Of a DNA stretch of 24,884 nucleotides, positions 1,653 through 24,000 are shown piece by piece (positions within the stretch are counted from its first letter, which is position 1; every line of letters starts with the position of its first letter). A program made the translations under genes and the position numbers. This stretch comes from a virus: positions 1-24,884 of the IMG/VR virus record IMGVR_UViG_3300033571_008377, one strand, 5' to 3'. The notes beneath the pieces are model-generated. The model was given only the letters and a program-made list of their open reading frames with translations. It was not told the origin of the DNA and did no database searches.

Positions 1653-3011
1653 ATGACTCGATTGCAAGAGAAGCTCGCCTCAATCGACGAGCTGAAGAAG
1701 CAGCAGAAGGGCGTGTTCGACGCCTACCCTGATCCGGGCAACATTCCAACCGAGGTGCTGGCCGATGTCAAACTGCGGAATGATGCCATCAAGAACCTCG
1801 AAGTTGAGGTGGCCAATCTCACCGAGCTGGAAGGCATCAAGAGCACGACGATGGGCTACGCGAAGGCCGAGCAGACGACGCATCACGGCGGGTCCGTCGT
1901 TGAGACGGCTACCAAGCACGCGCCGTCGTTCGAGTTCACGCGCGTTCGGAAGATCCAGCACTTCAAGGGCATCGTAGATGGCAAGTCCAGTGACTGGCGC
2001 GCGTATGCGTTCGGAAAGTGGTTCAAGGGCTTCATTGTTGGCGATGTCAAATCCCAGCAGTGGTGCCGTGAGAATGGCATCGAGAGCAAGGCACTCAGCG
2101 AGGGAAACAACTTCCTCGGTGGGTACTTGGTGCCACCGCAGTTCTCAAACGACATCATCGACCTTCGCGAGGAGTATGGCGTTGCCCGTCGTGTTGCCCG
2201 CATCGTTCCGATGTCCAGCGATACCCTGACAATTCCGCGCCGCACTGGTGGGCTCACTGCCTACTTCGTCGGCGAGGGCCAGGCAATCACGGCCAGCGAC
2301 AAAACCTGGGATCAGGTGAACCTTGTCGCCAAGAAGCTGGCATGTCTCACTCTGTGGTCCAGCGAGTTGAGCGAGGATGCGATCATCAGCATCGGCGACG
2401 ACCTCGCGGGTGAAATCGCCTACGCATTCAGCCTCAAGGAGGACGAGTGCTACTTCAATGGCGACGGGACGTCGACATATGGCGGCATCGTCGGCATCCG
2501 TCCGAAGCTGCGCAACGTCGACGGCACGATTGCGAACATCAAGGGCTTGCGCGTGGCTTCCGGTAATGCCTACTCGGAGATCACGCTGCCCGACTTCCAC
2601 GGCGTGCTGGGCCTCCTTCCGCTCTACGCTCGCGCCAATGCGGCGTGGATCATGAGCACCACCTTCTTCGACACTGTCGCGCATCGGTTGCAGACGGCTG
2701 CGGGTGGGAACGTGATCGCCGACATCGCCAATGGTGGCGTGCCGCGGTTCTTGGGCTACCCTGTCATCTTCTCGCAGGTGATGCCGAGCACCGAGGCCAA
2801 CAGTCAGATCTGCGCTCTGCTTGGTGACTATCGAATGGGCACGGCAATGGGTGATCGGCGATCCCTCACGCTGGCGCTCAGCACCGAGTACAAGTTCGCC
2901 GAGGACCAGTTGGCGATTCGTGGTACGGATCGCTTCGACATCAACGTTCACGACGTGGGATCGACGACGATTGCTGGCCCAATCGTTGGACTCATCACGG
3001 CGGCCAGCTAA
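1653..3011 (+). CDS. Major capsid protein, HK97 fold
   Basis: This 452-residue protein forms the head shell. Residues 1 to about 60 are charged and coiled-coil-like (LQEKLASIDELKKQQKG), as in the delta scaffolding domain that the upstream protease removes. A low-complexity linker runs to about residue 145. The mature part begins near GGYLVPPQFS (156-165) and continues with RIVPMSSDTLTIPR, a WSSELSEDA segment, FNGDGTSTYGGIVGI and a C-terminal region with ILHD-like strand order. This layout is typical of the Phage_capsid family. AAAGGAAA precedes the ATG. The exact cleavage point cannot be read from sequence alone. Confidence 0.93.
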   Translation: MTRLQEKLASIDELKKQQKGVFDAYPDPGNIPTEVLADVKLRNDAIKNLEVEVANLTELEGIKSTTMGYAKAEQTTHHGGSVVETATKHAPSFEFTRVRKIQHFKGIVDGKSSDWRAYAFGKWFKGFIVGDVKSQQWCRENGIESKALSEGNNFLGGYLVPPQFSNDIIDLREEYGVARRVARIVPMSSDTLTIPRRTGGLTAYFVGEGQAITASDKTWDQVNLVAKKLACLTLWSSELSEDAIISIGDDLAGEIAYAFSLKEDECYFNGDGTSTYGGIVGIRPKLRNVDGTIANIKGLRVASGNAYSEITLPDFHGVLGLLPLYARANAAWIMSTTFFDTVAHRLQTAAGGNVIADIANGGVPRFLGYPVIFSQVMPSTEANSQICALLGDYRMGTAMGDRRSLTLALSTEYKFAEDQLAIRGTDRFDINVHDVGSTTIAGPIVGLITAAS

Positions 3012-3026: not shown

Positions 3027-3476
3027 ATGAAGCCACTTAAGGCCACTAAGACAACGGTGCTGCTTGCACCGCAGACGCTCACTCACGGGAGCACTACCAC
3101 GGCGAACTTCGATCTCTTGGACGTCAAAGGCCAGGCGGAGATTATGGTGTCGTTCGGCGCTCTCGCTGGTGCTGGTACCGCACCTTCCTCGATCGTGATC
3201 TCTGAGAGTGACGACACTGTCGTTTCCAACTTCTCTGAGATCTCGACAGCATTCTCGACTGGTGCCGCTGCTGTCGGTGCCAACGAGTCTGTAAAGTTCT
3301 TTGTGAATCGTTCCAATGGTGGACGCAAGCGCTACCTGCGGCTTGCTATCACGGTTCCATCCGGATCGACGAACAGCAATATTCTGGCGTCCGCCGTCGG
3401 CCGTGTCGTCCAGCAGGGCGAGGACCCGAGCGCGAACAGCGAGCTTGGCGCCACCGTCTTCCGCGAGGTGCTGTAA
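3027..3476 (+). CDS. Small capsid-associated protein, possible head decoration protein
   Basis: This 149-residue protein is rich in Ser, Thr, Ala and Val, with alternating beta-strand patterns and no membrane segment or cysteine. No catalytic motif is seen. It sits directly after the major capsid gene and has an exceptionally strong ribosome binding site, so it is probably made in high copy. Position and composition fit a decoration (head-stabilising) or other capsid accessory protein, but I do not recognise the family with certainty. The reading SSIVISESDD followed by FSEIST resembles small post-capsid proteins in other siphophages. A palindrome and hairpin follow its stop codon. Confidence 0.6.
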   Translation: MKPLKATKTTVLLAPQTLTHGSTTTANFDLLDVKGQAEIMVSFGALAGAGTAPSSIVISESDDTVVSNFSEISTAFSTGAAAVGANESVKFFVNRSNGGRKRYLRLAITVPSGSTNSNILASAVGRVVQQGEDPSANSELGATVFREVL

Positions 3477-3532: not shown

Positions 3533-4753
3533 ATGGTGAAGCTCAACTTAGGCGGTGGACTTCAGAAGATCCCGGGCTATGTCAATATCGACAAGAAGCT
3601 CGGGACTGATGTGTATCCGCTAGAATACGAAGACGGGACTGTAGACGAGATCCGCGCGTCCCATATCCTTGAGCATTTCTCCCATCGAGAGGCGCACGAG
3701 GTACTAGCCCACTGGGTTGCCAAGCTCAAAGTGGGCGGGATGATCCAGATCGCCGTTCCGTCGTTTGACTGGATCATTGAAAACAAAGAGAACCCGCAGG
3801 CAGAAGCCTACTTGATGGGCGGGCAGACTGATGCGGACGACTACCACAAAAGCGTGTGGACGCGGCGCAAGCTGGCTGATGTGATGGCCTACGTTGGGCT
3901 GGCAGATATACAGGAATGGGACAGTCAGATAGCAGACTGCGCTTCTCTTCCCTTGTCGCTCAACCTGCAAGGGACGAAGACAGCCGAGCAGCCTGCCCGA
4001 CGTGTTGATGTCAATCTAGGCAAAGTCGTTGCGGTGATGTCGATTCCTCGCCTTGGTTGGAATGATGCTTGGGGTGGGATCATTGACGCGCTGCGCACAC
4101 CAGAGTTCGCTATTCCGATCTACCGATACTCGGGCGCATTCTGGGATCAGTGCATCCAGCGCGCATTGTTCGAGGCACAGAAGCACGGTGCAAGCTGGGT
4201 GCTGACGCTCGACTATGACAGTCTCATCAGCGCCAAAGACGTCAAAGAGTTGATGGTACTTGCGGCTGAGTATCCGGAAGCGGATGCCATCGTGCCGGTG
4301 CAAGTCAAGCGTGGCTCAGGTGGGAACTTTATGTTTTCCGCCAAAACAGACAAAGGCGAGTTCCGGCGCGAATGGACGGAAGAGGATTTGAACGTCGATC
4401 TGATGCCCATCGACACGGGCCATTTCGGTTGTACCCTGCTACGTGTCGCGGGGCTTGAGAAAATGACGCCGCCTTGGTTCCACTCCCAACCCGCTGAGGA
4501 TGGGCACTGGGGCAATGAGCGAATCGATGCTGATATTTACTTCTGGCGCAAATGGAAGGCTGCTGGCAACACCGTCTTCCAAGCCAACGATGTCCGCATC
4601 GGTCATCTACAGGTGATGGCGACGTGGCCCACGAAGGATTGGCAGATCTTGCACCGACACGTGGACGAGTGGACGCAGAACGGGAAACCAGAGGAAAGCA
4701 GAGGCAAGTATGAAGATCCGAATCATCAAGGCGTGGGGATTGTCCAAGGTTGA
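3533..4753 (+). CDS. Bifunctional SAM methyltransferase - GT-A glycosyltransferase
   Basis: This 406-residue protein appears to have two enzymatic domains. Residues 1-145 look like a class I SAM-dependent methyltransferase: KLNLGGG glycine motif at 3-9, VNID acidic strand end at 17-20, SHILEH at 43-48, and LKVGGMIQIAVPSFD at 65-79. Such proteins occur in surface-polysaccharide clusters. Residues ~163-365 look like a GT-A glycosyltransferase: VVAVMSIPR start, LTLDYDS with a DxD-type DYD at 227-229, a DTGHFGC acceptor-side segment at 294-300, an IDADIYF segment at 331-337, and a possible metal-binding GH at 357-358. AAGGAGG precedes the ATG at 3533; an in-frame ATG at 3512 lacks this site. The substrate is unknown; capsid or tail protein modification is inferred from position. 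It overlaps the next gene by 44 bp. Confidence 0.8.
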   Translation: MVKLNLGGGLQKIPGYVNIDKKLGTDVYPLEYEDGTVDEIRASHILEHFSHREAHEVLAHWVAKLKVGGMIQIAVPSFDWIIENKENPQAEAYLMGGQTDADDYHKSVWTRRKLADVMAYVGLADIQEWDSQIADCASLPLSLNLQGTKTAEQPARRVDVNLGKVVAVMSIPRLGWNDAWGGIIDALRTPEFAIPIYRYSGAFWDQCIQRALFEAQKHGASWVLTLDYDSLISAKDVKELMVLAAEYPEADAIVPVQVKRGSGGNFMFSAKTDKGEFRREWTEEDLNVDLMPIDTGHFGCTLLRVAGLEKMTPPWFHSQPAEDGHWGNERIDADIYFWRKWKAAGNTVFQANDVRIGHLQVMATWPTKDWQILHRHVDEWTQNGKPEESRGKYEDPNHQGVGIVQG

Positions 4754-4916
4754 CGACGTTATCGATCCGCCCGCACCAGTGGCTATCGAATTGATCAACG
4801 CAGGACGTGCGGTAATCGTCGAAGACCGCACAAGGCAGACTGCACCGACCACCGAGACGTGGAACAAGAGTGTGACACCACCACAGAGAGGAAGACGAGC
4901 CAATGGCAAGCTTTAG
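4710..4916 (+). CDS. Small head-region protein, unknown function
   Basis: This 68-residue protein starts inside the end of the glycosyltransferase gene and overlaps the following gene by 14 bp. The N-terminal half (KIRIIKAWG, then AIELINAGRAVIVED) resembles a small domain often encoded after phage capsid genes, in which a short beta segment is followed by a helix ending in an LI-x-AG-x-A motif. The C-terminal 25 residues are basic and probably disordered. A weak GAGG lies upstream of the ATG, so translation may be coupled to the upstream gene. Its role is not known to me. Confidence 0.6.
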   Translation: MKIRIIKAWGLSKVDDVIDPPAPVAIELINAGRAVIVEDRTRQTAPTTETWNKSVTPPQRGRRANGKL

Positions 4917-5304
4917 TAATTTTCTCGAAAATGCGTTGCTCAATCGGATATTCAATGGTGCGACATTGACTCTTCCGTCAACACTCTACATCGGGCTTTT
5001 CACCGCCGCACCAACAGACGCCGGTGGCGGAACCGAGGTGTCAGGCAATAACTACGCTCGATTGGCGGTGCCTGCTGATGCCACGAACTTCCCGACGAGT
5101 ACATCTGGCTCAGTCCAGAATGCGCTGACACTGACGTTTGCTATTCCGTCAGGCAACTGGGGCACGGTGACGCATATCGGTATATGCGATGCTGCAACGG
5201 CTGGCAATCTGCTTGTCTGGGGCGCGCTGAGTTCGCCTCGCGTAATCACGTCGAGCGCTGATGTGAGACTCAATCAGAACCAGCTAACGATCACACTGGA
5301 TTAG
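4903..5304 (+). CDS. Putative virion structural protein (beta-rich)
   Basis: This 133-residue protein contains LYIGLFTAAPTDAGGG (29-44), GNWGTVTHIGICDA and a C-terminal LTITLD. I recognise this pattern from a common phage protein family annotated as minor structural or tail-associated. It is beta-rich, has no signal peptide and no cysteine cluster. Its place between the head modification gene and the connector gene suggests a head or neck decoration role rather than a tail fiber, but this is inference. It overlaps the previous gene by 14 bp and is followed nine bases later by the connector gene, which has its own strong AGGAGG. Confidence 0.65.
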   Translation: MASFSNFLENALLNRIFNGATLTLPSTLYIGLFTAAPTDAGGGTEVSGNNYARLAVPADATNFPTSTSGSVQNALTLTFAIPSGNWGTVTHIGICDAATAGNLLVWGALSSPRVITSSADVRLNQNQLTITLD

Positions 5305-5313
5305 GAGGATATA

Positions 5314-6039
5314 GTGGCCGTTGATCTCAAAGCAGATCTAGCAGGGCAATCAAACCTGAGCGCTTGGGTTGCGTTCCCTGGGTATGTGACGCTGGCCGAC
5401 GTGCGAGCCTATACATACCAGTCACAGACAACGGATGACATTATTCTCACGCAGATGATTGTACGGGCAAGCCGGATCTTCGACGCTGCTTGTTCGGTAT
5501 CGGATGAGTTCTTTGCGCAGGGCAACGCAGATCAAACAACAAGCACGCGGACGTTCTGGGGCGATGGGACAGATCACCTTCTGATTGATCCGCATCTATC
5601 TAGCAACGATCCGGTCGCCACGATGCCGACGGGCTTCCAGGTGCTGCCCTATACCTACGCAAATCCCTACCGCAACGCTCGCCAGTACGCCGGGCAGGAT
5701 TTCTTTCTTGTCCGGACGTACGGAGAATCGAATAGCCGGGTGAGTGCGCTGCAGGAGCGGCGTGACTACTTCTTTGCCGAGTTCTCGAACCAGATCGACT
5801 ATATCGGCTGGCCTGCGGGGATCGCTGTCACGGTGGCGGCGAAATGGGGCTGGGATAGCACACCGCAGGATGTGCAAGAGGCTGTGCTCGAGATGGTGGC
5901 GCTGATGTTCCGGTCGCGGGATCAGGCATTCGCTCGGGCGGTGGCGATCGATGGGAACGTCGTGGTGAACTCGGCAATGACGCCACGGGCGCAGGCGATT
6001 GCGGACGGGTATGCACGCGGGAGGGCGATGTTTGCTTAA
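5314..6039 (+). CDS. Head-tail adaptor (connector) protein, gp6/gp15-like
   Basis: This 241-residue protein starts with GTG, supported by AGGAGG seven bases upstream. It has the layout of phage head-tail connector proteins: an N-terminal helical block (YVTLADVRAYTY, then an ILTQMIVRASRIFDAA helix typical of adaptors), a variable beta insertion (TRTFWGDGTDHLLIDP), and a C-terminal part with VTVAAKWGWDSTPQDVQEAV, the usual G-x-W-G-W-P-DV-A signature. Such proteins bind the portal ring and form the neck. The stop overlaps the TTG start of the next gene by eight bases. Confidence 0.8.
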   Translation: MAVDLKADLAGQSNLSAWVAFPGYVTLADVRAYTYQSQTTDDIILTQMIVRASRIFDAACSVSDEFFAQGNADQTTSTRTFWGDGTDHLLIDPHLSSNDPVATMPTGFQVLPYTYANPYRNARQYAGQDFFLVRTYGESNSRVSALQERRDYFFAEFSNQIDYIGWPAGIAVTVAAKWGWDSTPQDVQEAVLEMVALMFRSRDQAFARAVAIDGNVVVNSAMTPRAQAIADGYARGRAMFA

Positions 6040-15117: not shown

Positions 15118-18100
15118 ATGCAGAACACGTCACAGTCACTCGTCAATATCCTGTCGTCGTCTACGCGCGACTTCGTGCCTGTCGATCTGATCGAATTCTA
15201 CGAGCCAACGATTACTGAGCTTGTTCCAGGCTTGGCGTCCAAGCGGTTCGCGAATACATCTCTTGTCTGGTATGGGTGGCAATATGAGCAGCAGGCGGTA
15301 TCCCGCGGATCGACTGCGCGGTATATCGACGAGCGGTTCAATACTGTGTCGCTGACATTCTCGAACGTGGACCGATCGTTGTCTCAGTGGTTGTCGTCCG
15401 TTTCGGTGGCGGGCTATCGCGTCCTGATCCGTGCTGTCTCTCGCAGCGTGACGGGCGATTCGATTGTGCTCTTCATTGGGCGAGTAGAGAAAGCATTCAG
15501 CGTCTCCAATACCTCAGTTTCACTCACGATCAAGCAGGATCTTGGCTCGATCAATAGTGAGTTGCCTGCGCGGAAGTTTAGTCACGCTTGCCCGTTGAAA
15601 TTCAAGGGCAAGGATTGCCTAGGTGGACAGGCGATCACAGCCAAAACGCAGCGGTATCAAAACGCAACGACGTGTGACAAGAGCTGGCAGCAGTGCCGGA
15701 CGTACGGGAACTCGATCTTCTTCCAGGGTTTCCGGACAACAAACGTCACGGGCTCCTTCGTGCTGCGGGATCGATCGTCGTTTGGCATCCCAACGAAGAG
15801 CACGAAGCAATGGTCCAGCCAAGACGCCACGCCGATCAATGAGCACGTGCCAATGGGCCTGGGTCGCACGCAGATCGAGCTGACGCCGATCGCCTCAGCT
15901 GATACCGGCCAATATCTCTATGGGCATTGGGTCGCCGGTGAAGGCCCGATCGCCAAGTTCAAGAATGTGCGCAACGTGACACCTGGCTTTGCCCGTCGCT
16001 TCGAGGGACAGGCAGACAACGGCGAGCCGAGCGGTACTGGATCCTATCGTGAGCACCTCGGGACATATGGGGACGTTGCTGGGCAGCAGTCCGCAAGCGA
16101 TTTTTTGGGCACAGTGCATTATTCAGGCCGGGCCTATATCGAGGGTACCATTCAAGGTCAAAACCCTGATACAGGCGATCCTGCGCCAAGTATCGTGTCG
16201 ACTGTACTCTGGAATCCGATTCCAACGGCCACACGTGGCACGAAATACGATCCAGCCGTGACGGACTGGACAGACAACCCTGTCGATCACGTGCGGTATA
16301 TCCTCACTCACGAACGAGGGCTTCAGTATCCAGTCGAGATGGTCAACGACGAGGTGGCCATTGAGACGGCGAAATACTGCGACGAGCCTCTATATGACAA
16401 GAGCGGCGGGGAGGATCTCGTTGTAGGTCAGACGGATGATGTATTGTACGGATCATTCACGGCTGGACGTTTCCGATCGACGGGCCTGATCGATCCGTTT
16501 TTCTGGCGTCGTCGGCTCAACTCGAGTGCGCCGTATTCAGCCGAGAGACTGGCGAATATCACGTATTTTCCTGTGGTCGAAACGGTCACAAATGAATTCG
16601 GGCAGCAGGTAGAGCAGCTTGTACCACCACCTCTGAATTTCACACCCAATGAGTATTTCCGGAAGCGCTACACGGCAAACTGGCACCTGAAGAAAGGTGT
16701 CAAGGTGGCCGACTTCCTGTTCAAGCAGCTGCTACCCTCTTTCCAAGGCTACTTGGTGACGGGTGCGGATGGGCGTTTGCAGATCCGCTCTCAGCGGTCG
16801 GCTATTCAATCTCGATCATCGGGCACAGTCACGCCAGCGATGAACACCATCGATGTCTACGATGGGAAGCAGTTCATCGATCTGAATCTGCCGGTCAAAT
16901 ACGTCTTGATTCAATCGCCCGGATTTCCGGCAAGTGGTAACGTGAGACAGGTCGTTGGCATCGACTACCTCACGGCTGCGAATGCGATCACGATCGGGCC
17001 GCCGTCGTCGGGCGCGTCTGGAATGAATTGCCGCATCTGGGGCGCAAATCCAAACACGCAAGCGGCAACGACATTCAGCGGCGGTTCCACTCAGTATCAG
17101 GCGTTCGCGTATATTTTGGTGACCGATGGACTGACTCAAAATTCAACGGCTGGCGTTCGGATTGACGGCGTAGACGTGGGCGCGGGTGGGCCAGTAGGGA
17201 ACACGTCGGGTTATACGTCCAACTGGAGCGCAGAGATTGCGGCGATGATTGCCACGAACATCAACGCGAACCCAAACCTGCGCAACGCTCTCGGGATCCC
17301 ATTACGTGACTATATCGAAGCCATCTGGGAACCAAGCAACCCGCTGATGGTGCTCTTCCGATCCAAGCAGGCAACGCTGATTCTTGATCAGCCATTCAAC
17401 ACGACGTTTCCGATCAATGCACTGGTGACTCACTTCCACCTGCCCTTCTCTGACGGATCAGATGGACGGCCTAGCACGATCCTCAAAGACTCATTTGAGT
17501 GGCCCTTAGGAGGCCGCCAGAGCACCTACAATCGATTTTCGATCACGTATCAAGACTCTGTACAGGATAGTCAGAGCATCAACGTCTTAGAGAACGATTA
17601 CGACCACCAAGAGGCAACAAACCAGATCAACAAGATGGATGTGCTTGGCGGTGAGTGCGTCGACAATTACCACCAAGCGGATCGGCTCTTGTTGGCTGCT
17701 CGATACAAATACAGAGAAGGCGACTTCTTTGTTCAGTTCCAGACGGCGGGCTTGGCGATGCTACTCGAAGAGGGTGATTTGATTCTCGTGAATCACTCGT
17801 CGATGTTGTTATTCAAGAATTATCTGTATCGGATCGAAGAGCTAAGTATCAGCCAAGATCACCGGGTGACGATCACGGCTCGATTGTATGCCGACACTCA
17901 ATATCCAGAACAACCGGTACCAAAGACGATTCCTCTTACACGCTCGAATGATTGGCAGGCAGCGATAGCACCACCTGTCAGATCGTTTAATATTGAGCGA
18001 CTACCTAACAGTGGCAATTCCGCTCGCGTGACGATCGGATTTCCCGAGACTGTAGCACCGGTGACAATTCGCGTACTTGTTCGGCGAGCAGGAATAGATT

Positions 18101-19272
18101 CAAACTTTGTCGATACGGGAATGATGGTGGCAGCTGGTGAAAACAATCTCGGTCAATTCGAGCTGGCTGGGATTACTACGGGATCTCAGATTCAATTCAT
18201 CCCAGTAAGCTCCACAGGCATTGAAGGTGTATCCTCATTATTCACAGTTCATACATTGCCTTCCGATACCAGTGGCGGCGGGATCGGTGTCACGGATGGT
18301 GACAAGGGCGATATCGTCGTCAGTAACACCGGTGCAACGTGGACGATTGATACGAACGCAGTCACGACAGCCAAGATCGGCAATGATCAGGTCACCTACG
18401 CCAAGATCCAAAACGTCAGCGCGGCAAGTCGGCTGCTTGGACGCGGTTCGGAGAGTGGGTCGGGCGATGTCCAAGAGATTGCAATTGGTACCGGCCTGTC
18501 AATGTCTGACACGACATTCAGCAGAACTTACACCCAGCCCACGATTCAGGTATATACCAGCTCTGCTACCTGGACTAAGCCGTCAGGTTGCCGATTCGTA
18601 AAAGTGAAAGTTTGGGGTGCTGGTGGCGGTGGTGGAGGAACTGGAGTCGCAAACACATTTGTAGGTTATCCTACAACAGGTTATGAGTTCTCCTTAGGTG
18701 CAGGCGGCGGCGGCGGAGGTTATGCCGAAAAGATTGTAAACGTTGCATCGATATCAACAGTCATTGTAACGATTGGAGCCGGTGGGACGGGCGGCACGGG
18801 GAATGCAACGCCAAATAGTAATGGAGGTACTGGAGGCACCGGGGGGACGACGTCGTTCGGTACTCATGTATCTGCATCTGGGGGCGCTGGTGGTACTGGC
18901 GGCAAGAGCACGCCCTCATCTGGTCTGAGCAATTCATCAGGAGGGGGTCCCGGAAATGGCAGTAACGGCAACGTTAACATTGAGGGCCAAAGAGGAATAA
19001 ATCCTATTTGCCTTGTCTCGTACATTTGGAATAATGTTGCTAACACAAACGACAGCGGATTTGGACTGTTATTCGGCTTAAGCGGTGCTGGCGGTCCTGG
19101 CGCAAATGGTGGTGGTGGTGGGGCCAGTCAGTTTTTTCCAACAACAAGTGGGGATGGAAATGCTCCAGGTGGAGGAGGTGGGGGTGCGCACTCCGGATCC
19201 GCAAATACTGTTGAGCGGGCAGGAGGTGCGGGTGCTGCTGGAAGGTGTGTTATTGAGGAATATTATGACTGA
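15118..19272 (+). CDS. Tail tip hub / central fiber: gpL-like and gpJ-like fusion with glycine-rich adhesin
   Basis: This 1384-residue protein is the likely receptor-binding tip. Residues 1-205 resemble lambda gpL: Cys158, 167, 186 and 193 give C-x8-C-x18-C-x6-C followed by FFQGF. The first and last spacings equal those of the gpL iron-sulfur site. Residues ~380-1000 resemble gpJ: DNPVDHVRYILTHERGL, then a WHLKKGVKVADFLF segment, then an LLEEGDLILV segment. At ~1060-1140 is a fiber motif (GDKGDIV, then SAASRLLGRGSESGSGDVQEI). From about 1151 (WTKPSG) to the end is a glycine-rich domain with GGGGGG runs, resembling phage Gly-rich adhesins. Starts right after the upstream stop. Confidence 0.85.
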   Translation: MQNTSQSLVNILSSSTRDFVPVDLIEFYEPTITELVPGLASKRFANTSLVWYGWQYEQQAVSRGSTARYIDERFNTVSLTFSNVDRSLSQWLSSVSVAGYRVLIRAVSRSVTGDSIVLFIGRVEKAFSVSNTSVSLTIKQDLGSINSELPARKFSHACPLKFKGKDCLGGQAITAKTQRYQNATTCDKSWQQCRTYGNSIFFQGFRTTNVTGSFVLRDRSSFGIPTKSTKQWSSQDATPINEHVPMGLGRTQIELTPIASADTGQYLYGHWVAGEGPIAKFKNVRNVTPGFARRFEGQADNGEPSGTGSYREHLGTYGDVAGQQSASDFLGTVHYSGRAYIEGTIQGQNPDTGDPAPSIVSTVLWNPIPTATRGTKYDPAVTDWTDNPVDHVRYILTHERGLQYPVEMVNDEVAIETAKYCDEPLYDKSGGEDLVVGQTDDVLYGSFTAGRFRSTGLIDPFFWRRRLNSSAPYSAERLANITYFPVVETVTNEFGQQVEQLVPPPLNFTPNEYFRKRYTANWHLKKGVKVADFLFKQLLPSFQGYLVTGADGRLQIRSQRSAIQSRSSGTVTPAMNTIDVYDGKQFIDLNLPVKYVLIQSPGFPASGNVRQVVGIDYLTAANAITIGPPSSGASGMNCRIWGANPNTQAATTFSGGSTQYQAFAYILVTDGLTQNSTAGVRIDGVDVGAGGPVGNTSGYTSNWSAEIAAMIATNINANPNLRNALGIPLRDYIEAIWEPSNPLMVLFRSKQATLILDQPFNTTFPINALVTHFHLPFSDGSDGRPSTILKDSFEWPLGGRQSTYNRFSITYQDSVQDSQSINVLENDYDHQEATNQINKMDVLGGECVDNYHQADRLLLAARYKYREGDFFVQFQTAGLAMLLEEGDLILVNHSSMLLFKNYLYRIEELSISQDHRVTITARLYADTQYPEQPVPKTIPLTRSNDWQAAIAPPVRSFNIERLPNSGNSARVTIGFPETVAPVTIRVLVRRAGIDSNFVDTGMMVAAGENNLGQFELAGITTGSQIQFIPVSSTGIEGVSSLFTVHTLPSDTSGGGIGVTDGDKGDIVVSNTGATWTIDTNAVTTAKIGNDQVTYAKIQNVSAASRLLGRGSESGSGDVQEIAIGTGLSMSDTTFSRTYTQPTIQVYTSSATWTKPSGCRFVKVKVWGAGGGGGGTGVANTFVGYPTTGYEFSLGAGGGGGGYAEKIVNVASISTVIVTIGAGGTGGTGNATPNSNGGTGGTGGTTSFGTHVSASGGAGGTGGKSTPSSGLSNSSGGGPGNGSNGNVNIEGQRGINPICLVSYIWNNVANTNDSGFGLLFGLSGAGGPGANGGGGGASQFFPTTSGDGNAPGGGGGGAHSGSANTVERAGGAGAAGRCVIEEYYD

Positions 19273-20831: not shown

Positions 20832-20882
20832 ATCCGGCGAATCCGGATGAGTCTATTCTATCTATCGCTTGCTATTTGTCAA
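20832..20882 (-). promoter_or_regulatory. Sigma70-type promoter with inverted repeat upstream of annealing protein gene
   Basis: On the minus strand TTGACA (20882-20877) is followed 16 bases later by TAGAAT (20860-20855), close to TATAAT. The -35 box lies in the last codons of the thymidylate kinase gene. A perfect 6-bp inverted repeat, ATCCGG-ATTCG-CCGGAT (20848-20832), covers the expected start site and could be an operator or a 5' hairpin. This gives the annealing protein its own promoter in addition to operon read-through. Confidence 0.65.
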
Positions 20883-21480
20883 GCGTAGACAGGTAAGATT
20901 GCACAATATACGCTTGCTTTTGTGAGTCTACCTGCCACGGGATCCAACCGATGATTCGATCCGTGGTCCGTGACTCGCGGATCATATGCCAATCGTAGTT
21001 GGACGCCAGTCGAGACAAATCGTACTTGTCTGGCCTCTCGCCACGGAACACCAAACGCGAATAGGCGACACCGGGCGGCACGGGCAAATAGAACGTCACA
21101 TCAGGATAGCGGACGCCACTGTACGGATCAGGATCACCGATTGCCCTCTCGCCGTCCATCTGGTAGACGTAGGTGCTGTCTGCCCATCGATCCTGTAGGA
21201 CTATAGTGCCATCTGGCAGGTTGTCCAGCCGTTGTTGGATTGACAGGAAGTCGTCGGTATACCGATTGATCCGATCGGCGCGTGACAGATGGGCGTGCTC
21301 TGCCCTGACGGCCTCCTGCCTGTCGCGCCAGCTGGGCGCATAGGACGTGACGACGTGACACCACGGGCTCAACAGTTCACGCACGGATTGGATGAGCGTG
21401 GTTTTCCCTGCGCCGTCGATGCCCTCAAAGGCAAGCATTATCGTGGGCTTGGTGCCCATGATCTTCCTCTGGTATTGCAT
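20872..21480 (-). CDS. tmk: Thymidylate kinase (dTMP kinase)
   Basis: This 202-residue enzyme phosphorylates dTMP to dTDP. The P-loop is FEGIDGAGKTT at 18-28. A DRW motif (97-99) followed by DSTYVYQ matches the family's DR(Y/W)-x-x-S-x-x-YQ block. VTFYLPVPP near 128-136 is the usual strand before the C-terminal lid and helix. A start at 21480 is chosen because GGGAGG precedes it and its ATG overlaps the upstream stop (TGATG). Genes for thymidylate synthase lie in the same operon, so together they supply dTTP. The N-terminus has about ten extra residues compared with typical enzymes. Confidence 0.88.
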   Translation of the reverse strand: MQYQRKIMGTKPTIMLAFEGIDGAGKTTLIQSVRELLSPWCHVVTSYAPSWRDRQEAVRAEHAHLSRADRINRYTDDFLSIQQRLDNLPDGTIVLQDRWADSTYVYQMDGERAIGDPDPYSGVRYPDVTFYLPVPPGVAYSRLVFRGERPDKYDLSRLASNYDWHMIRESRTTDRIIGWIPWQVDSQKQAYIVQSYLSTLDK

Positions 21481-21671
21481 CACGCACCTCCCACGGCTGA
21501 GAACGCCACGATAATGACGCCGATCGCCATCACCACCTCGACGATCGCCACGTATAGCGGCCGATCGCCTTCCCACTCCTCGTGACGGATGATCTTGTGG
21601 ACGCCGTGCCATCCAGCTGATACGGCAATCAGGCAGGAAGCCAGATAGAAAAGGGCCAGTTCAGGACGCAT
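21480..21671 (-). CDS. Small two-helix membrane protein
   Basis: This 63-residue protein has two hydrophobic segments: LALFYLASCLIAVSAGW near the N-terminus and VAIVEVVMAIGVIIVAFSAVGG at the C-terminus, separated by a charged loop (HKIIRHEEWEGDR). GAGAGG lies eight bases before the ATG. It overlaps the upstream zinc-ribbon gene by 11 bp and touches thymidylate kinase by one base. It is of unknown function; a two-span hairpin is a holin-like shape, but position in a nucleotide operon argues for caution. Confidence 0.65.
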   Translation of the reverse strand: MRPELALFYLASCLIAVSAGWHGVHKIIRHEEWEGDRPLYVAIVEVVMAIGVIIVAFSAVGGA

Positions 21672-23049: not shown

Positions 23050-24000
23050 TCACACCGCCACCGGGTAGTCGATGCGCGGCTCGATCGGGTGATAGTCGAG
23101 TAGATCAAAGTCGTCGATGGTTGCGCTCAGTACGCTCTTGAACGACGGCTTGATCAGCAGCTTTGGTCCGCTCATTCGGGCAGGGATTGGCGGGTAAGCC
23201 AGTCCCTGGCGCTGCATCTGCTCGCCGAATGCGCTGGTGGCGATCTTCCTGTCGAGGTAGTCGTCAGAGAATGGCGCACCAAGGCGGGCGTTGTTCCGCA
23301 GGCGTGCTTCCTGCTGCAATGCCAGATCGATCTGATTTTCGTAGACGTGCGCGTCCGCCATCGAGATGCGCAGCTCGCCAGGCGCATAGCCTAGCTCACG
23401 GCACAGCATCAGCGTCAGCGTCGCGTAGGCCACGACGTTGAAGGGCACGCCCACGGGCAGATCAGCCGAGCGCATATGGACGAAGGTGTTGAGGCGCATC
23501 TGCGTATCGGTAGCGTGGTCGATGTAGAACTGGAACGCATAATGACAGGGTGGCAGGCGCATATGGTCGAGCTGCCTGACGTTCCACGAATCGACGATAT
23601 GACGACGGCTGAATGGGTCACTGTGCAAGTTTTGGATGACTCTTGCCAGCTGATCCACGTGAAGGTGCGGATATTGCTCAGGTGCTCCTGCTCGTCGCCA
23701 CTGTGCACCGTAGACCGGTCCAAGCTCGCCATCTGCACTCGCCCAGGCGTCCCAGATATGCACGCCCTGCTCTTGCAGCGGGCGGACGTTTGTCGACCCG
23801 CTGATCATCCAGAGCAGCTCTTTGAGGCACGTCTTCCACGCTACCGGCTTCGTGATCAGGATCGGGAACTCGGTTGACAAGTCCGCCGTCAGCACCGGGC
23901 CGAACTTCGAGCGCGTGCCCGTGCCCGTCCGGTCCGGGCGTCGCTGCCCGTAATGAATCACGTCGGTCATCAGTTGCAGGTATTGCTCTTCGAATCGCAT
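23050..24000 (-). CDS. thyA: Thymidylate synthase (ThyA type)
   Basis: This 316-residue enzyme converts dUMP to dTMP with methylene-tetrahydrofolate. Visible key residues are Arg24 in DRTGTGT, Glu61 in ELLW, WDAWA at 83-87, the SRR phosphate-binding pair near 131-133, catalytic Cys152 in LPPCHYAFQFYI, Asn188 in GVPFN (asparagine, as in enzymes using dUMP, not the aspartate of dCMP hydroxymethylases), His218 and Tyr220 in DAHVY, and the terminal PVAV. Residues ~230-285 form an insertion compared with the 264-residue E. coli enzyme. GAGGAG precedes the ATG. A 45-residue zinc gene overlaps its start by 31 bp. Confidence 0.93.
   Translation of the reverse strand: MRFEEQYLQLMTDVIHYGQRRPDRTGTGTRSKFGPVLTADLSTEFPILITKPVAWKTCLKELLWMISGSTNVRPLQEQGVHIWDAWASADGELGPVYGAQWRRAGAPEQYPHLHVDQLARVIQNLHSDPFSRRHIVDSWNVRQLDHMRLPPCHYAFQFYIDHATDTQMRLNTFVHMRSADLPVGVPFNVVAYATLTLMLCRELGYAPGELRISMADAHVYENQIDLALQQEARLRNNARLGAPFSDDYLDRKIATSAFGEQMQRQGLAYPPIPARMSGPKLLIKPSFKSVLSATIDDFDLLDYHPIEPRIDYPVAV

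What the first reader, a model, noticed from the sequence alone, without database searches (positions are those of the whole stretch)
3533..4753. Methyltransferase-glycosyltransferase fusion inside the capsid gene cluster
A class I methyltransferase-like domain (LNLGGG, ILEH, GGMIQIAVP) and a GT-A-like domain (DYD, C-terminal GH) sit in one polypeptide between a capsid accessory gene and the head-tail connectors. Phage glycosyltransferases that modify virion proteins are known, but a fused pair in the structural module suggests a sugar that is transferred and methylated on the particle. This would be a virion-coating system that could affect immune or receptor recognition. An alternative is modification of host surface glycans.
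Basis: partly seen in the sequence, partly recalled or inferred. Interest (0 to 1): 0.75.

Follow-up and report, generated by a model that had tools for sequence, protein, structure and literature searches.

The report
Phage head-protein sugar-methylating enzyme cassette
A gene in the head-building region of this uncultured phage fuses an enzyme that attaches sugars to one that adds methyl groups, and across more than a hundred related phages it occurs together with one particular type of head-coat protein, so it probably puts a methylated sugar on that coat protein.

Summary
Observation confirmed. Window 3533-4753 (+) is one 406-aa protein: a compact class I methyltransferase domain (1-150) fused to a GT-A glycosyltransferase domain (158-390), between the small protein after the major capsid gene and the head fibre/adaptor genes. 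An AlphaFold2 model (pLDDT 91) gives both folds; the best GT match is A197 of archaeal virus STIV (Z 18.8). The family is absent from 50,697 cultivated-phage records but common in uncultured phages. New result: the enzyme is tied to one type of the adjacent head protein ('deco'). A scan with deco alone found the GT downstream in 68 of 69 decidable loci; the 69th shows the MT up to its contig end. Presence changes once on the deco tree but about ten times on the capsid tree, so deco and enzyme move together between capsid lineages. The GT is the constant part; FkbM methyltransferases, sulfotransferases, cytidylyltransferases or a GDP-mannose dehydratase are optional partners. Best reading: deco is glycosylated and the sugar methylated (in relatives perhaps also sulfated). 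Activity, acceptor and sugar are inferred, not shown. Phage capsid glycosylation with a nearby methyltransferase is known (Corndog), so this is a new variant of a known kind. Any immune role is untested.

The parts
3533..4753 (+). MT-GT fusion protein, 406 aa
   Evidence: ORF; AlphaFold2 model pLDDT 91; relatives over full length
3533..3982 (+). N-terminal compact class I methyltransferase domain (residues 1-150)
   Evidence: phrog_6636 E 4e-6; Foldseek matches to SAM-dependent methyltransferases; conserved motifs
4004..4702 (+). C-terminal GT-A glycosyltransferase domain (residues 158-390), DxD at 4211-4219 (D227-Y228-D229)
   Evidence: VIA-align Z 18.8 to STIV A197, Z 17 to LH3; invariant DxD
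3027..3476 (+). deco: small head protein, the proposed glycan acceptor
   Evidence: Position directly 3' of the capsid gene; phrog_5707 4e-11; Bbp16 PF21190 below its cut-off; one change of the MT-GT trait on the deco tree
1653..3011 (+). HK97-type major capsid protein
   Evidence: PF05065 1e-45
4710..4916 (+). small ORF overlapping the end of MT-GT; in loci with no cassette it often follows deco directly
   Evidence: phrog_829 E 0.011 only
4903..5304 (+). gp80-like fibre/head protein
   Evidence: PF23140 5e-42; phrog_240 head protein
5314..6039 (+). head-tail adaptor
   Evidence: phrog_442 3e-11

Best explanation
The protein is a phage-encoded virion-glycosylation enzyme. Its GT-A domain takes a sugar from a host nucleotide sugar and transfers it, most likely to Ser/Thr side chains, onto the small head protein encoded directly upstream (deco, 3027-3476), which probably coats the outside of the capsid. 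The fused N-terminal methyltransferase then O-methylates that sugar with SAM, capping it. In related phages the same core pair (deco plus GT) carries extra tailoring enzymes (FkbM methyltransferase, sulfotransferase, cytidylyltransferase-like, a sugar-nucleotide enzyme) that vary the cap. Shown: gene, folds, conserved motifs, fixed position, and linkage of the GT to one deco type with no clear exception. Inferred: catalysis, acceptor, sugar, linkage chemistry, and exposure on the capsid surface.
For: Both folds predicted with high confidence and matched to solved structures; DxD and MT motifs conserved over 45 diverged proteins. 46 of 50 fused genes with enough upstream sequence lie within 3 kb of capsid/deco. 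Deco-only scan: GT in 68 of 69 decidable loci, the other truncated inside the MT. One change on the deco tree against about ten on the capsid tree; similar capsids (56-69% identity) with opposite state have decos only 21-33% identical. Deco Ser+Thr +4.0 points in positive loci by PGLS on the capsid tree, p 1e-8, capsid Ser+Thr n.s.. Tailoring partners at the same site. Bacterial MT homologues sit beside sugar-nucleotide and rhamnosyl O-methyltransferase genes. Precedents: Corndog, STIV A197.
Against: No biochemical or virion data. The Ser/Thr effect rests on one transition on the deco tree (p 0.023) and the independent-pairs test on the capsid tree is underpowered (median p 0.25), so ancestry could explain it. 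Deco is not firmly assigned to any known decoration family. The deco query was built from enzyme-positive loci. The relative placing of the two domains is uncertain (pTM 0.63).
Confidence: 0.6

Rival explanations
1. The enzyme glycosylates and methylates another virion protein (major capsid protein or the gp80-like fibre), and the tie to deco is only hitch-hiking of neighbouring genes.
For: Capsid protein and tail tube are the reported targets in cluster O mycobacteriophages; all candidate genes are neighbours.
Against: Presence follows deco, not capsid: one change against about ten; GT distances track deco better than capsid (partial 0.37 against 0.12); a gp80 homologue was found in only a few of the relatives.
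Confidence: 0.17
2. The enzyme modifies host surface glycans (receptor masking or superinfection exclusion) and merely resides in the late operon.
For: Bacterial homologues of the MT lie in surface-polysaccharide-like clusters; matches to the GT domain include wall teichoic acid GTs TarP and TarS.
Against: Fixed place behind the deco gene and co-inheritance with it; no membrane or flippase gene among the partners scanned.
Confidence: 0.1
3. The enzyme takes part in DNA hypermodification together with the thymidylate synthase and kinase-like genes at the right end of the window.
For: Thymidylate synthase 23050-24000 and a thymidylate-kinase-like gene 20872-21612 in the same record; phage DNA glucosyltransferases exist (own knowledge).
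Against: The thymidylate synthase was found in 1 of 4 related records searched (fragments), whereas MT-GT is constant beside deco; best structural matches are protein and polysaccharide GTs.
Confidence: 0.03
4. The methyltransferase domain is a non-catalytic remnant and only the GT is active.
For: Very compact domain without a helix between the first two strands; some relatives have the GT without this MT (L328, L341, L348, L353).
Against: G7, E47, H48, H105 invariant and D20, H44 conserved over 45 diverged proteins; purifying selection; in L222 a different methyltransferase domain takes its place.
Confidence: 0.1

Closest known systems
Cluster O mycobacteriophages (Corndog gp35 O-methyltransferase, gp36/gp37 GTs, gp38 GlcNAc-transferase)
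   Same: Methyltransferase and GT genes inside the structural module; capsid modification proposed (PMC4351075) and capsid and tail-tube modification reported (Freeman 2023 as cited in PMC11600133).
   Different: Separate genes between portal and protease, in cultured phages of mycobacteria; here one fused protein 3' of capsid and deco, tied to a deco type, with sulfotransferase or FkbM partners in relatives. No direct sequence comparison with the Corndog proteins was made beyond the phage database search.
STIV A197 glycosyltransferase (archaeal virus)
   Same: Minimal GT-A fold, best solved match (Z 18.8, rmsd 2.0 over 157 residues, 14% identity); suggested to act on the viral coat protein (PMC10551542).
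   Different: No methyltransferase domain, different virus lineage; acceptor of A197 also unproven.
Small phage and bacterial class I methyltransferases (phrog_6636, Methyltransf_11-like; e.g. Pseudomonas phage 14-1, mycobacteriophage PLot)
   Same: Same compact methyltransferase domain type by sequence or structure.
   Different: Usually stand-alone, or fused to other domains, and not beside capsid genes; function mostly unknown.
Bbp16 cement protein of Bordetella phage BPP-1
   Same: Small protein encoded directly 3' of the capsid gene; weak sequence resemblance to deco (PF21190 best E 0.0014, below cut-off).
   Different: Homology not established (hhalign probability 11%); BPP-1 genes bbp17-bbp16-bbp15-bbp14 show no enzyme gene in between.

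Membership tests
GT-A superfamily glycosyltransferase | GT-A (nucleotide-diphospho-sugar transferase) fold | tested here: met
   Z 18.8 to A197, 14-17 to many GT-A enzymes over residues 158-361
GT-A superfamily glycosyltransferase | DxD metal-binding motif | tested here: met
   D227-Y228-D229, both Asp invariant in 45 sequences
GT-A superfamily glycosyltransferase | Activity with a nucleotide sugar | not testable with these tools
   Needs an assay
Pfam PF00535 Glycos_transf_2 | Score above the curated cut-off | tested here: not met
   16.2 bits against 23.3 for the window protein; relative L076 reaches 23.9. Not filed as a member; GT-A superfamily only.
Class I SAM-dependent methyltransferase | Rossmann-like methyltransferase fold | tested here: met
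   Foldseek matches to 2p8j, 1vlm and others, E about 1e-5, target TM 0.47-0.49; lacks a helix between strands 1 and 2
Class I SAM-dependent methyltransferase | Glycine motif I and acidic residue at the end of strand 2 | tested here: met
   G7 invariant, D20 in 90% or more of 45 sequences
Class I SAM-dependent methyltransferase | SAM-dependent methyl transfer | not testable with these tools
   Needs an assay
Phage virion glycosylation system | GT encoded in or beside the structural genes | tested here: met
Phage virion glycosylation system | Virion protein carries the sugar | not testable with these tools
   No virion data; uncultured phages
Bbp16 cement protein (for deco) | Match to PF21190 above the cut-off | tested here: not met
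   18.0 bits against 27.1 for the window protein; 3 of 10 members match at all at E up to 1. Not filed as a member.
Bbp16 cement protein (for deco) | Jellyroll fold bound to the capsid exterior | not tested

The most novel reading that the evidence does not exclude
A large group of uncultured phages carries a self-contained coat-glycosylation module: a dedicated glycan-acceptor decoration protein plus its GT, moved as a unit between capsid lineages, with interchangeable capping enzymes (methylation, second methylation, sulfation) that give each phage a different chemical coat, including sulfated sugars, which the one literature search made here did not find described on phage capsids.
Probability: 0.4. 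Interest if true: 0.8.

Novelty: new variant of a known kind. Interest (0 to 1): 0.62.

Why it matters
Few phage glycosylation systems come with a candidate acceptor. Here the genomes single out one head protein and one enzyme that co-occur without a clear exception, so a two-gene co-expression test would decide it. If right, many environmental phages wear chemically capped, and in some lineages perhaps sulfated, sugar coats that are exchanged as modules. That bears on how virions meet hosts and surfaces, and it offers a small soluble enzyme that may both glycosylate and methylate a protein.

Tried and rejected
First AlphaFold run with 7 sequences gave pLDDT 61 and was discarded. Sequence searches of the PDB gave only noise or one very weak methyltransferase hit. 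No match to the window protein in cultivated phages at E 1e-5; weak partial hits only at E up to 10; no match for deco. The NCBIfam MftM hit at 13 bits is not meaningful. Deco against Bbp16 by hhalign was inconclusive; small ORF 4710 against bbp15 showed no similarity. The independent-pairs test of deco Ser/Thr content was underpowered. The N-terminal extension of L074, L209a and the ORF at L073 358-999 look like non-coding or wrong-frame ORFs and were not counted as partners. Literature searches for glycosylated phage decoration proteins and for phage capsid with sulfotransferase found nothing relevant in the held library. Freeman 2023 full text is not held.

Full report
What is there. The ORF at 3533-4753 encodes 406 aa and is preceded by AAGGAGG. 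HMM libraries recognise it only weakly, but a 45-sequence alignment gave an AlphaFold2 model with pLDDT 91. Residues 1-150 form a reduced class I methyltransferase: strands at 3-6, 17-19, 37-43, 65-77, 123-128 and 142-149, with no helix between the first two. Residues 158-390 form a GT-A domain; the best solved matches are STIV A197 (Z 18.8), human LH3, mimivirus R699, B4GALNT1 and TarP. pTM is 0.63, so the relative placing of the two domains is not certain. D227 and D229 are invariant and H358 nearly so. MT residues G7, E47 and H48 are invariant, D20 and H44 nearly so. Both domains are under purifying selection.

Relatives. Cultivated-phage records hold no match at E 1e-5; only weak partial hits appear at E up to 10. 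IMG/VR holds about fifty relatives with both domains at 33-95% identity, and a few lie in MAG contigs. In fused genes with at least 1.5 kb upstream, 46 of 50 have the capsid or deco gene ending within 3 kb upstream. The order capsid - deco - (extras) - MT-GT - small ORF or connectors persists over this range.

An optional cassette at a fixed site. Capsid-based scans return loci with and without the enzyme. In loci without it, deco is followed by the small ORF or by other short genes, several of them connectors. On a capsid tree of 94 loci presence changes ten times at least, with six independent contrasts on well-supported branches. Capsids 56-69% identical can differ in state, and their decos are then only 21-33% identical.

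Tied to deco. On the deco tree of the same 94 loci the trait changes once. A new scan with the deco alignment alone gave 74 new loci. Five were too short to judge. Of the other 69, 56 have MT and GT, 12 have the GT without this MT, and one shows the MT up to the contig end; none lacks both. The 134-row deco tree again needs one change (support 95, shuffled mean 25.7). Bias: the deco query came from enzyme-positive loci, and the best 80 of 118 were kept, so it favours window-like decos; but the scan itself does not use the enzyme. The tree rests on 134 columns and FastTree. Physical closeness alone does not explain the pattern, since the equally close capsid-deco link is broken repeatedly while deco-GT survives insertion of other genes between them.

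Composition. Deco of positive loci has 4.0 points more Ser+Thr and 3.2 points fewer acidic residues (PGLS on the capsid tree, p 1e-8 and 5e-7), with no significant change in capsid Ser+Thr (p 0.1). Deco distances track GT and MT distances better than capsid distances do. On the deco tree the Ser+Thr effect is p 0.023 with a single transition, so shared ancestry cannot be excluded. I treat this as supportive only.

A tailoring island. Among 120 loci with distinct decos and at least one such enzyme, the GT is found in 116 and the compact MT in most. FkbM-type methyltransferases occur in 34, as a separate gene, an N-terminal fusion or an insert. Sulfotransferases occur in 12 and cytidylyltransferase-like genes in 6. 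One locus has a GDP-mannose 4,6-dehydratase (L230, 6e-117). L057 and L059 have the order GT-MT, and L222 has a different MT on the same GT. The window has the minimal form, deco + MT-GT. Bacterial homologues of the MT sit beside sugar-nucleotide, rhamnosyl O-methyltransferase and other methyltransferase genes, which points to a sugar rather than a protein as the methyl acceptor.

Mechanism. Most likely the GT transfers a host-derived sugar to Ser/Thr of deco in the cytoplasm before or during assembly, and the fused MT methylates the sugar. Extra enzymes in relatives would add a second methyl or a sulfate. Fold, motifs and linkage are shown; substrate, chemistry, surface exposure and order of steps are inferred.

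Compared with what is known. Cluster O mycobacteriophages place an O-methyltransferase and GTs between portal and protease, with capsid modification proposed (PMC4351075) and later reported for capsid and tail tube (Freeman 2023 as cited in PMC11600133; the paper itself was not held). STIV A197 is a viral GT-A enzyme suggested to act on its coat protein (PMC10551542). The kind is therefore known. The fused enzyme, the pairing with one deco type and the sulfotransferase/FkbM tailoring are the new parts as far as the searches here reached. Deco resembles the BPP-1 cement protein Bbp16 in size and place, but homology was not established.

Noticed in passing
L024:1374-2066, L034:6687-7328, L037:6483-7226, L042:1697-2335, L047:6725-7435, L072:885-1553, L190:6466-7107, L043 (fused N-terminally): Sulfotransferase genes (PF00685) in the head module of related phages, between deco and MT-GT.
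   Followed up: partly
L024:2056-2682, L034:7324-7989, L042:2331-2990, L190:7094-7765, L164:8052-9146: Cytidylyltransferase-like genes (PF01467) beside the sulfotransferase or MT-GT; substrate unknown.
   Followed up: partly
L230:1994-3250: GDP-mannose 4,6-dehydratase (6e-117) with a weak C-terminal cupin-like match, between deco and MT-GT in the head module.
   Followed up: no
L195:7419-8366, also L196, L198, L201, L228: Loci without the MT-GT cassette that carry two deco-like genes in tandem after the capsid gene.
   Followed up: no
L328:2023-2742, L341:3611-4288, L348:5375-6019, L353:1051-1695: A deco sub-clade whose GT stands alone, without the MT domain; the state before or after fusion could be compared.
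   Followed up: partly
L048:10318-11694, L049:9780-11174: A second protein with the reverse order GT-MT further downstream in the same phages.
   Followed up: no
window 20872-21612 and 23050-24000, minus strand: Thymidylate-kinase-like and thymidylate synthase genes; could be ordinary nucleotide metabolism or modified thymidine; the synthase was found in one of four related records.
   Followed up: partly
window 15118-19272: 1384-aa protein whose C-terminal part matches phrog_863, tail fiber assembly.
   Followed up: no
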